Below are positions 23,911 to 28,768 of a stretch of DNA of 33,649 nucleotides, piece by piece. Source of the stretch: Candidatus Helarchaeota archaeon (lineage in GTDB: Archaea; Asgardarchaeota; Lokiarchaeia; Helarchaeales; HEL-GB-A); NCBI GenBank assembly GCA_016840125.1, contig JAEOSY010000076.1:1-33649 (forward strand). The letters are read 5' to 3'. Within the stretch, counting starts at the first letter, position 1. Each line of letters opens with the position of its first letter. The notes beneath the pieces were generated by a model. The model was not told the origin of the DNA. It saw only the letters and a program-made list of their open reading frames with translations, and did no database searches. Made by a program: the position numbers and the translations under genes.

Positions 23911-24040
23911 CCCTTCGGATTCATTTGCGCATTTCTCGTGTTTGCGCATTTTCTTTAGGAGATTTTTATAACTTTTTATACATTTTATAACAATTTGAGT
24001 ATCAGTTCAAACGGTACTGGATTTTCACCTTTACAAAACT

Positions 24041-24049
24041 TTTTTAAAA
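24041..24049 (+). promoter_or_regulatory. TATA box for the permuted 5S rRNA
   Basis: TTTTTAAAA is centred about 25 nt before 24071, which is the first base of the outer stem around the 5S-like RNA. The spacing is what an archaeal promoter needs. Confidence 0.45.
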
Positions 24050-24070: not shown

Positions 24071-24251
24071 GGATTAGATTTGCGTTGAGATTCACGCCGA
24101 ATCAAGCTCTGAAACGATTCAGTTGGTACTATAGTGCGAGAGCCTATGGGAAGGCTGAGAAGCTGAACTTCGGTTCGGTCATAGCTCAGAGGTTATACCC
24201 GTTCTCATTCCGAACACGGCAGAGTGGGTCTCATGCCACCAAATCTATTCC
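24071..24251 (+). rRNA. Circularly permuted 5S ribosomal RNA (core 24099-24220)
   Basis: The 3' half of 5S rRNA comes first: loop B strand GAATCAAG, helix II strand CTCTGA (24107-24112), then helix V (TTCAG 24118-24122 / CTGAG 24155-24159), a loop-E-like region and helix IV (CTATAG 24129-24134 / CTATGG 24144-24149). Helix I is GCTGAAC (24162-24168) paired to GTTCGGT (24173-24179) and closed by the tetraloop TTCG. The 5' half follows: CATAGC, helix II strand TCAGAG (24186-24191), and the helix III/loop C block CCCGTTCTCATTCCGAACAC, the strongest 5S signature. The new ends meet in a 10-bp stem (24086-24095/24224-24233) and a 12-bp stem with one mismatch (24071-24082/24240-24251). The core is 122 nt, the normal 5S size. 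Confidence 0.8.
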
Positions 24252-24349: not shown

Positions 24350-24518
24350 GGGGCTGTAATGTAGCCAGGTATCATGCTGGGCTCCAGAAGGAACCTAAAA
24401 TTAGGGTCTGCTGACGGAAGGATGACGAACTTTTGGAGCGGATCCTGGTGAGACCCAGAGAAACGACACAGCGCGTGCGTTTCCGGTAGTATTCGCCGGT
24501 TCAAGTCCGGCCAGCCCC
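24350..24518 (+). tRNA. tRNA-Trp (CCA), with intron and extra insertion
   Basis: Acceptor GGGGCTG (24350-24356) pairs with CAGCCCC (24512-24518). The anticodon stem is CTGGG (24377-24381)/CCCAG (24454-24458), anticodon CCA at 24384-24386. The T arm is GCCGG-TTCAAGT-CCGGC (24495-24511). A 65-nt intron lies at the canonical position 37/38 (about 24388-24452). The variable region between 24459 and 24494 is 36 nt instead of about 5, and contains a hairpin GAAACG/CGTTTC, so a second intron of about 31 nt is likely. CCA is not encoded. The first intron contains CTGA (24411-24414) and ATGACGA (24422-24428), resembling D' and C' boxes. Confidence 0.88.
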
Positions 24519-24531
24519 ATATTATAATACT

Positions 24532-24636
24532 GGGCGGGTAGTCTAGTCTGGCTATGATTCCAGGTTTGGGACCTGGAGGTCGTGGGTTCGAATGACTCCC
24601 ATCGGACGGTAGGAGCCCGATACTCCCATCCCGCCC
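24532..24636 (+). tRNA. tRNA-Pro (TGG), with T-loop insertion
   Basis: Acceptor GGGCGGG (24532-24538)/CCCGCCC (24630-24636). Anticodon arm CCAGG-TTTGGGA-CCTGG with anticodon TGG at 24567-24569. The T stem is GTGGG (24582-24586) with T loop TTCGAAT, but its 3' strand CCCAT (24625-24629) comes only after a 31-nt insertion (24594-24624). The insertion holds a hairpin ATCGG/CCGAT and repeats the exon sequence ACTCCCAT once. CCA is not encoded. Confidence 0.9.
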
Positions 24637-27519: not shown

Positions 27520-27601
27520 CTAGATTTGTAAATATTGATTTAATCTCAGAAATTCATAATTATGGCTTCGTTAGCCGTTGTTATTGCTAGGAGATTCATA
27601 T

Positions 27602-28768
27602 ATGACTGAGGAAAAAGAGGATACACTCTTAATTGCAAGAGACCAATACTTGGCTGCGGGAATTCATATTGGAACTCAGATTAAAACGCAAGATATGATA
27701 CCATTTATCTACCGAATCACGCGAGCTGGACTTTATGTTATAGATATAAGACAAACTGACGAACGAATGCGAATCGCAGCTAAATTTATCTCACGGTTTG
27801 ACCCAGAAAGAATGGTAGTAGTCTCAGCGCGGCGTTATGGGCACAATCCTATCCAACAATTTGCCCATATTGTTGGCGGTCACGCCATCCCAGGGCGATT
27901 TGTTCCCGGCACACTCACCAATCCAAATGCGCGAAGCTTTCTTGAGTGTGATTTACTGGTAATTGCTGATCCCAGAGCGGACAAACAAGCCCTCAGAGAG
28001 GCAAAAATTGCCAAAATTCCGGTTGTCAGTTTCTGTGATACAGATAATAATTTAGGTAGTATTGATTTATGTGTTCCCGCGAATAACCGGGGGAGAAAAG
28101 CGCTTGCCTTAATTTTCTGGTTACTTACACGTCAGGTGCTCCTTGAAAAGGGCGAAATCGGTAGAGTTGAGGATTTTGACGTGGATGTAAATAGATACCA
28201 GTCAAGAGGGTTAATCTCCTATGAGCCAACAGGTGATCGTCAGAAAATCCTATCACAACTCAAAGAAGTGGTTAGCGAAGAAGAACAAGAGAAACCTAAG
28301 GATGAAATTACGACGGAACCTGAGAAAGTCACTGAGGAAAAACCTGAGGAAAAAGTAGAAGAAAAACCAGCTGAAGAACCTGTAGAGAAGGTTGAAGTAG
28401 AGATCCCCGAGACTAAAGCACCGGTGGAAGAAAAGCCTGCCGAAGAGATTTTAGACAAAAAAGCTCCCGAGGTGCCAGCAGGAGACGTCGTTAAGCCCGA
28501 AGACCTCATTGATGGTCCGTTACCTGAGCCAAAGCCAAAAAAAGCAGCAAAGAAAAAAGCGAAAAAAAAGCCTAAAAAAGAAGAGAAGGAAAAAAAGGCT
28601 AAAAAAGAAGAGAAGGAAAAAAAGGCTAAAAAAGAAGAGAAGGAAAAAAAGGCTAAAAAAGAAGAGAAGGAAAAAAAGGCTAAAAAAGAAGAAAAGGAAA
28701 AAAAAGATAAGAAAAAAAAGGGGAAAAAAGCTAAAAGTGAGGAGGATACTAAGCCAAAGGATGAATAA
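27602..28768 (+). CDS. rps2: Small ribosomal subunit protein uS2 with long C-terminal extension
   Basis: A 388-residue protein. The first ~205 residues are an ordinary archaeal uS2 (LAAGIHIGTQIKTQDMIPFI, VVSARRYGHNPIQQFA, GHAIPGRFVPGTLTNP, LIVIADPRADKQAL and VPANNRGRKALALIFWLL-type blocks). The C-terminal 180 residues are extra: a Glu/Pro/Val-rich segment (about 220-305) followed by a Lys/Glu-rich repeat region. The ATG follows TAGGAG at good distance. Archaeal uS2 is usually near 200-230 residues, so the tail roughly doubles it. The tail lies on the solvent side of the small subunit and could bind RNA or a partner. Confidence 0.95.
   Translation: MTEEKEDTLLIARDQYLAAGIHIGTQIKTQDMIPFIYRITRAGLYVIDIRQTDERMRIAAKFISRFDPERMVVVSARRYGHNPIQQFAHIVGGHAIPGRFVPGTLTNPNARSFLECDLLVIADPRADKQALREAKIAKIPVVSFCDTDNNLGSIDLCVPANNRGRKALALIFWLLTRQVLLEKGEIGRVEDFDVDVNRYQSRGLISYEPTGDRQKILSQLKEVVSEEEQEKPKDEITTEPEKVTEEKPEEKVEEKPAEEPVEKVEVEIPETKAPVEEKPAEEILDKKAPEVPAGDVVKPEDLIDGPLPEPKPKKAAKKKAKKKPKKEEKEKKAKKEEKEKKAKKEEKEKKAKKEEKEKKAKKEEKEKKDKKKKGKKAKSEEDTKPKDE
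28571..28705 (+). repeat. 27-bp tandem repeat encoding KKEEKEKKA
   Basis: Five copies of a 27-bp unit start at 28571, 28598, 28625, 28652 and 28679; the middle copies are identical and the first and last diverge slightly. They encode a nine-residue Lys/Glu repeat at the end of uS2. Near-identity shows recent expansion by slippage or recombination. Copy number may vary between strains or assemblies. Confidence 0.9.

What the first reader, a model, noticed from the sequence alone, without database searches (positions are those of the whole stretch)
24071..24251. A circularly permuted 5S rRNA gene
The segment reads as 5S rRNA in swapped order: the 3' half (helix II strand, helices V and IV, helix I strand) precedes the 5' half (helix I strand, CATAGC, helix II strand, helix III/loop C). 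Helix I, where 5S rRNA normally has its two ends, is closed by C(UUCG)G, an extra-stable tetraloop. The interrupted helix II pairs exactly (CTCTGA with TCAGAG), and the core is of normal length. The new ends are clamped by a 10-bp and a 12-bp stem separated by a 3x6 internal loop, a natural processing site. I know of permuted 5S rRNA in some mitochondria, but not in archaea, and no normal 5S gene is seen in this window.
Basis: partly seen in the sequence, partly recalled or inferred. Interest (0 to 1): 0.93.

Follow-up and report, generated by a model that had tools for sequence, protein, structure and literature searches.

The report
Swapped-halves 5S rRNA gene in Asgards
In what is likely an Asgard archaeon, the gene for 5S ribosomal RNA has its two halves in swapped order, with the molecule's usual two ends fused into a hairpin; by model score most related genomes searched carry the same swapped gene and almost none of those has an ordinary one, so it is likely the 5S RNA that their ribosomes use.

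Summary
Window 24071-24251 holds a 5S rRNA gene in permuted order. In native order Rfam matches it at 26.8 bits (cut-off 38), over its 5' half. Joined in ordinary order it scores 71.0 bits with a model of ordinary 5S (native order 33.0; best of 300 shuffles 2.8). The nearest named relative (Ca. Helarchaeota Hel_GB_A) has the same gene and clamp. In its phylum 138 of 227 genomes score 47 bits or more with a model of the permuted form; 133 of the 138 have no over-cut-off ordinary 5S, among them seven genomes held essentially in one contig. On 85 aligned cores the interrupted helix II is paired in 91% of cells, with many two-sided changes. A class of 47 genomes has ordinary 5S (43) and no permuted one. 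Break points vary: five loci open in loop C, one before helix III; helix I stays a closed hairpin. The gene is not beside 23S in the 30 genomes where both were placed. Expression, mature ends and ribosome incorporation are inferred; linear or circular final form is undecided (no canonical splice motif in the window's clamp). Ten literature searches found no such report for archaea.

The parts
24035..24049 (+). TATA-like promoter element (AAAACTTTTTTAAAA); centre of the T6A4 run about 26 bases before the clamp
   Evidence: sequence; same element at the same spacing in L002, T-run from 1969, clamp from 2000. Promoter role inferred.
24071..24082 (+). outer clamp stem, 5' strand (pairs with 24240-24251; 11 pairs and one U-U)
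24083..24085 (+). internal loop, 3-base side
24086..24095 (+). inner clamp stem, 5' strand (pairs with 24224-24233)
24099..24168 (+). 3' half of 5S rRNA: loop B 3' side, helix II strand (24107-24112), helices V and IV, helix I 3' strand (24162-24168)
   Evidence: alignment of 85 cores, pair counts, rearranged score
24169..24172 (+). UUCG loop that closes helix I where ordinary 5S has its two ends
   Evidence: loop lengths 2-15 in the 85 cores, 4 in 41 of them
24173..24220 (+). 5' half of 5S rRNA: helix I 5' strand, CATAGC, helix II strand (24186-24191), helix III and loop C
   Evidence: RF00001 match
24224..24233 (+). inner clamp stem, 3' strand
24234..24239 (+). internal loop, 6-base side
24240..24251 (+). 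outer clamp stem, 3' strand

Best explanation
This is a circularly permuted 5S rRNA gene that is likely the cell's working 5S gene: it is predicted to be transcribed from its own promoter as a linear RNA whose two new ends pair in a clamp, and the RNA would fold into an ordinary 5S shape with helix I capped by UUCG and enter the large ribosomal subunit opened at loop B. Shown: the swapped order, the closed helix I, the covariation of helix II across the swap, the presence of the form in many related genomes, the lack of an over-cut-off ordinary 5S in nearly all of them. Inferred: transcription start near the first clamp base, linear mature form, assembly into ribosomes. Likely origin (inferred): tandem duplication of an ordinary 5S followed by loss of the outer halves.
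For: Rearranged window 71.0 bits, native 33.0, 300 shuffles at most 2.8; rearranged above native in 85 of 85 cores, rearranged length 112-119. L002 homolog with the same clamp. Pair counts on 85 cores: 88.8% of 2570 cells paired, 33-48% when slid; 760 cells with two-sided changes against 253 (sd 15) in shuffles; helix II 91.1%, helix I hairpin 98.4%. R2 at 47 bits or more in 138 of 227 genomes (tallied in 71); 133 of them without RF00001 over cut-off. Seven of the 138 (G012, G053, G054, G055, G121, G122, G174) have one contig as long as the stated genome size to 0.1 Mb and none of the seven has an over-cut-off RF00001. Not beside LSU in 30 of 30 genomes where LSU was found (28 on another contig, 2 more than 300 kb away). 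In the tandem locus L035 helix II pairs within each permuted copy (-12.4, -8.2 kcal/mol) and poorly in the ordinary reading (5' strand of copy 1 with 3' strand of copy 2: -2.9). TATA-like motifs lie mostly 60-51 bases before the UUAAG anchor. An E. coli strain with only circularly permuted 5S, built into 23S, is viable (PMC7283268, abstract and passages).
Against: No RNA evidence. The window's genome is not held. R2 alone is not specific: ordinary 5S in Halobacteriota score up to 56 bits and tandem ordinary ones up to 95; 24 of the 138 genomes are known by score only. Five of the 138 also have an over-cut-off RF00001: three beside bacterial LSU (G045, G110; G134), one lying over the permuted gene itself (G034, 38.4 bits), one unexplained (G017 C117, 48.3 bits). 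The structure counted was taken from the window's own fold, which favours it; one measure (further pair types, 100 against 98.2, reached by 171 of 500 shuffles) shows no excess. Clamp pairing is less clear: own trailer better than every distant trailer in 32 of 92 loci, within the best 5% in 56 of 92, 36 weak; the window's is bettered by 1 of 90.
Confidence: 0.85

Rival explanations
1. The transcript is cut in the clamp and its ends are ligated, so that the working 5S is a covalently closed circle; the gene's break point is then only the place where the circle is closed and can wander.
For: Break points differ while helix I stays closed: loop B 3' side in the aligned cores, loop C in L124, L125, L127, L130, L131, before helix III in L145. 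A canonical bulge-helix-bulge pattern fits 27 of 92 leader/trailer pairs against 16.5 (sd 3.4) for mismatched pairs. Circular 5S-derived RNAs were found in Halobacterium and Sulfolobus (PMC12558985, passages) and circular 16S/23S in Asgard transcripts (PMC12918454, passages).
Against: No such motif fits the window's clamp, and the one hit in L012 is not in its clamp. The excess may only reflect that true clamps are complementary. The predicted transcription start at the clamp's first base needs no cut. PMC12918454 says that 5S is not circularised in the cultures studied, and PMC12558985 suggests degradation.
Confidence: 0.3
2. It is a rearranged extra copy or a 5S-derived regulatory RNA, and an ordinary 5S gene elsewhere serves the ribosome.
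For: The window's own genome could not be searched; metagenome assemblies miss rRNA genes; one permuted genome (G017) has an ordinary-like 5S on another contig.
Against: 0 of 4 genomes of the nearest order have an over-cut-off ordinary 5S; seven essentially one-contig genomes have none; compensatory changes in all five helices show selection on the whole 5S fold.
Confidence: 0.06
3. It is an assembly artefact or the seam of tandem ordinary 5S genes.
For: Tandem ordinary 5S do give high scores with the permuted model (L154, L156).
Against: Single copies inside long contigs of many genomes; the helix I loop is 2-15 bases, too short for a spacer; in the one tandem locus helix II pairs within each permuted copy.
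Confidence: 0.02

Closest known systems
Ordinary archaeal 5S rRNA (Rfam RF00001)
   Same: All five helices, loop C, loop B and helix IV/V motifs; core of 112-119 bases
   Different: Halves in swapped order, helix I a closed hairpin, new ends clamped; native-order score below the family cut-off
Permuted mitochondrial 5S rRNA (Valach et al. 2014; Rfam RF02547 mtPerm-5S)
   Same: Same principle: a permuted 5S gene. Known to me from the family name, reference lists and a mention in PMC11528492; the paper itself is not held
   Different: In archaeal genomes, not organelles; RF02547 reaches its cut-off in 0 of 4 genomes and matches none of the permuted places
Engineered circularly permuted 5S within 23S of E. 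coli (PMC7283268, abstract and passages)
   Same: Native ends joined, new ends in loop C or D, functional; the loop C opening resembles L124, L125, L127, L130 and L131
   Different: Engineered and fused into 23S; here natural and, where placed, apart from 23S
Circularly permuted 23S of Pyrococcus furiosus (PMC7758197; seen in search listing and abstract start)
   Same: Archaeal rRNA with changed end-to-end order
   Different: There the permutation is made by RNA processing; here it is in the gene
Permuted LSU-1 fragment of Polytomella mitoribosome (PMC9576764, passages)
   Same: Old ends fused to a loop, new ends elsewhere; tandem duplication proposed as origin
   Different: Mitochondrial 23S fragment, not 5S

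Membership tests
5S rRNA (homology) | Sequence and helices I-V of 5S when halves are put in ordinary order | tested here: met
   71.0 bits rearranged, 33.0 native, shuffles at most 2.8; pair counts
Rfam RF00001 as it stands | Match in native order above the gathering score of 38 | tested here: not met
   26.8 bits; none at gathering threshold
5S rRNA (function) | RNA present in the large ribosomal subunit | not testable with these tools
   no RNA or structure data on hand
Permuted mitochondrial 5S (RF02547) | Match above the family's cut-off of 39 bits | tested here: not met
   0 of 4 genomes of the nearest order; no match at the permuted places
RNAs excised and circularised at a bulge-helix-bulge motif | 3-base bulge, 4-bp helix, 3-base bulge in the clamp | tested here: inconclusive
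   none in the window; 27 of 92 loci against 16.5 (sd 3.4) in mismatched controls
Tandem ordinary 5S genes | Over-cut-off ordinary 5S at the place | tested here: not met
   none in the window; none in the order of G001

The most novel reading that the evidence does not exclude
Most Asgard lineages run their ribosomes on a circularly permuted 5S rRNA that is a closed RNA circle in the mature ribosome; the permutation arose early in Asgard evolution, its break point has since moved at least twice, and ordinary 5S in some Asgard classes is either ancestral or a reversal, which bears on the ribosome of the lineage from which eukaryotes came.
Probability: 0.25. Interest if true: 0.97.

Novelty: new variant of a known kind. 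Interest (0 to 1): 0.91.

Why it matters
5S rRNA was known in permuted form, as far as I know and could find, only from mitochondria and from engineering. If these genes are what Asgard ribosomes use, a whole phylum of free-living cells, the one from which eukaryotes are thought to come, has a ribosome with a rewired 5S. It also explains a practical puzzle: 5S genes could not be predicted in circularised Heimdallarchaeum genomes (PMC8813620, passage), and MAG quality rules that demand a 5S gene may mark such genomes down. The natural variety of break points tells where 5S can be opened without loss of function.

Tried and rejected
Rejected: (1) bulge-helix-bulge processing site in the window's clamp (no fit in either polarity). 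(2) The genome-wide pattern scan as a measure of spread: it found four stretches in genome contigs, one real (L002) and three haloarchaeal ordinary 5S with a chance CATAGC behind (L001, L003, L004), and it missed the other permuted Asgard genes, so it says nothing on absence. (3) R2 score alone as proof: in Halobacteriota 156 of 392 genomes pass E <= 1e-8 and seven matches exceed 72 bits; I opened three, of which L154 and L156 hold two over-cut-off ordinary 5S in tandem and L155 one right behind the match; the other four, and the 45-56 bit matches, were not opened, so permuted genes there are not excluded. (4) A clamp test by duplex energy: own leader/trailer mean -24.3 against -15.4 with distant trailers, but 36 of 92 loci weak; an earlier form, own trailer best in 25 of 90, is blunted by near-identical relatives. 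(5) mtPerm-5S model: no match at these places.

Rows dropped before counts: of 100 R1 matches, 94 regions were distinct and 85 were aligned. I left out L054, L081, L085 (cut at contig ends), L083, L093, L113, L117, L119, L120; several of these have insertions in the 5' half. In one search, 69 four matches had no anchor and four more lacked flank.

Full report
Observation. The 181 bases at 24071-24251 read as 5S rRNA in swapped order, at the stated coordinates. Rfam at its gathering threshold finds no 5S in the window; in E-value mode RF00001 matches 24171-24247 with 26.8 bits, E = 0.0068, skipping the second half of the model. The region folds better than 199 of 200 shuffles. An HMM of ten ordinary 5S genes (nine from the same phylum, one haloarchaeal) scores the rearranged core 71.0 bits, the native order 33.0, and 300 shuffles at most 2.8; in all 85 aligned cores the rearranged order scores higher (means 54.0 and 24.8).

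Where it comes from. No whole genome is held for the window. A collection scan with a pattern for '3' half, short gap, CATAGC' hit a contig of Ca. Helarchaeota Hel_GB_A (L002), which carries the same gene with the same clamp, 89% mean column identity. The window's DnaG is 75% identical to that genome's, the best of 76 genomes with a match in an 83-genome class. HdrB, FTR, archaeal DnaG and archaeal-type uS2 also point to an archaeon. That the window is from an Asgard archaeon near Helarchaeota is an inference from these.

Spread. In Hel_GB_A's genome RF00001 gives only two half matches at the permuted gene and one weak match elsewhere. In its order, 0 of 4 genomes have an over-cut-off ordinary 5S and 4 of 4 have the permuted gene. 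In the phylum, a two-sequence model (R1) hits 104 of 227 at E <= 0.5. A model of 85 cores (R2) gives 47 bits or more in 138 of 227; RF00001 is over its cut-off in 64 of 227. Both in five: G045 and G110 beside bacterial LSU, G134 beside bacterial LSU, G034 where the match lies over the permuted gene, and G017 unexplained. By class: class of G001, 63 of 83 permuted, 8 ordinary (two of them the contaminants); class of G012, 55 of 58 permuted; class of G173/G174, 2 of 2; class of G180, 0 of 47 permuted and 43 ordinary, best R2 score 45.0; the other 37 genomes, 18 permuted, 10 ordinary, 9 neither. In all, 30 of 227 have neither at these thresholds, one of which (G084) proved to be permuted by reading (below). 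DNA was fetched for 114 of the 138 genomes; 85 cores including the window are shown aligned; the remaining 24 genomes rest on the score.

Strength of the classification. R2 by itself is not specific: ordinary haloarchaeal 5S reach 56 bits and tandem ordinary 5S reach 95. The claim therefore rests on R2 together with the lack of an over-cut-off ordinary 5S, and on reading the loci. Seven of the permuted genomes consist, to 0.1 Mb, of one contig (G012, G053, G054, G055, G121, G122, G174) and have no over-cut-off ordinary 5S. Searches of more than 40 genomes used stricter filters that lose weak matches.

Structure. On the 85 cores, 88.8% of 2570 cells form standard pairs (33-48% when the partner is slid by 1-3 columns); 760 cells have two-sided changes against 253 (sd 15) in shuffles; helix II, whose strands are in swapped order, is 91.1% paired with two-sided changes in all six pairs; helix I as a hairpin 98.4%; helix III 99.4%; helix IV 88.4%; helix V 68.3%. 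The number of further pair types does not exceed shuffles (171 of 500 reach it). The structure was taken from the window's fold, which favours it. Helix I loops are 2-15 bases, 4 bases in 41 of 85, and UUCG itself in 12.

Clamp and ends. In the window an outer stem (11 pairs and a U-U) and an inner stem (10 pairs) are separated by a 3x6 loop; against L002 there are two-sided changes A-U to U-A in the outer, and A-U to G-C and C-G to U-A in the inner stem, with one A-C mismatch in L002. Other clades have other clamp sequences; statistical support across loci is moderate. In the aligned cores both ends often carry a copy of the CGGAA-like helix III / loop B junction, which fits an origin by tandem duplication. 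The break lies at the loop B side of helix III in these; in L124, L125, L127, L130 and L131 the loop C 3' side and helix III strand stand upstream, so the break is in loop C; in L145 (G084) all of helix III stands upstream, so the break is before it. In L035 (G058) two permuted copies lie in tandem with unlike clamps, and helix II pairs within each copy.

Expression signals. AAAACTTTTTTAAAA lies about 26 bases before the first clamp base in both the window and L002, the spacing expected (recalled) between an archaeal TATA box and the start of transcription. In 92 loci, TATA-like motifs fall mostly in the bins 60-56 and 55-51 bases before the UUAAG anchor (19 and 20 loci; one locus may count twice), and runs of five T are commoner 20-79 bases after the GAAC anchor than further downstream. 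In 30 of 30 genomes with an LSU match, LSU is on another contig (28) or more than 300 kb away (2); different contigs could still be neighbours in the cell.

Mechanism. Most likely the RNA stays linear, its new ends held by the clamp, and is assembled as 5S with helix I capped. Shown: gene order, fold conservation, distribution. Inferred: start site, mature ends, ribosome incorporation. A circular product is the chief rival: break points wander, and archaea circularise rRNA and make 5S-derived circles (PMC12918454, PMC12558985, passages), but the window's clamp has no canonical bulge-helix-bulge, and over 92 loci the excess of such fits (27 against 16.5, sd 3.4) may only reflect complementarity.

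Known. Permuted 5S is known from mitochondria (Valach et al. 2014, not held; mentioned in PMC10085705 and PMC11528492, passages). PMC10085705 lists natural permuted RNAs and names 5S only through that paper. PMC8813620 reports that 5S could not be predicted in circularised Heimdallarchaeum genomes (passage). PMC9723677 reports 5S genes in MAGs of Borrarchaeum and Jordarchaeum (passages), in line with a mixed phylum. Ten searches of an open-licence library without preprints listed no paper on permuted 5S in archaea; subscription papers and preprints are not covered.

Noticed in passing
window 24350-24519 (+): tRNA gene with a long intron (RF00005, 40.1 bits over 170 bases; likely tRNA-Trp, my reading) right after the 5S, missed by ARAGORN; followed by tRNA-Pro at 24531-24607.
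   Followed up: no
L039 1043-1239 (-): Two tRNA genes, one interrupted, also lie just downstream of the permuted 5S in G003 of the same order; possible conserved neighbourhood.
   Followed up: partly
L035 1364-1657 (-): Two permuted 5S copies in tandem, about 20 bases between model matches, with unrelated clamp sequences.
   Followed up: yes
L124, L125, L127, L130, L131 and L145: Other break points of the permutation: loop C (five loci) and before helix III (one locus).
   Followed up: partly
L148, L149, L119, L120, L123: Permuted 5S with a hairpin inserted in loop C.
   Followed up: no
L147 893-1759 (-): Three tandem ordinary 5S genes about 374 bases apart in G087, a genome of the same class as the permuted ones.
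   Followed up: no
G017 C117 (L134 1001-1138, -): Ordinary-like 5S (48.3 bits, 138 bases) in a genome that also has the permuted gene; contaminant or second gene not decided.
   Followed up: partly
window 27578-28768 (+): uS2 reading frame of 396 aa with the uS2 domain only in residues 19-210; the rest is an unexplained extension or a wrong frame end.
   Followed up: no
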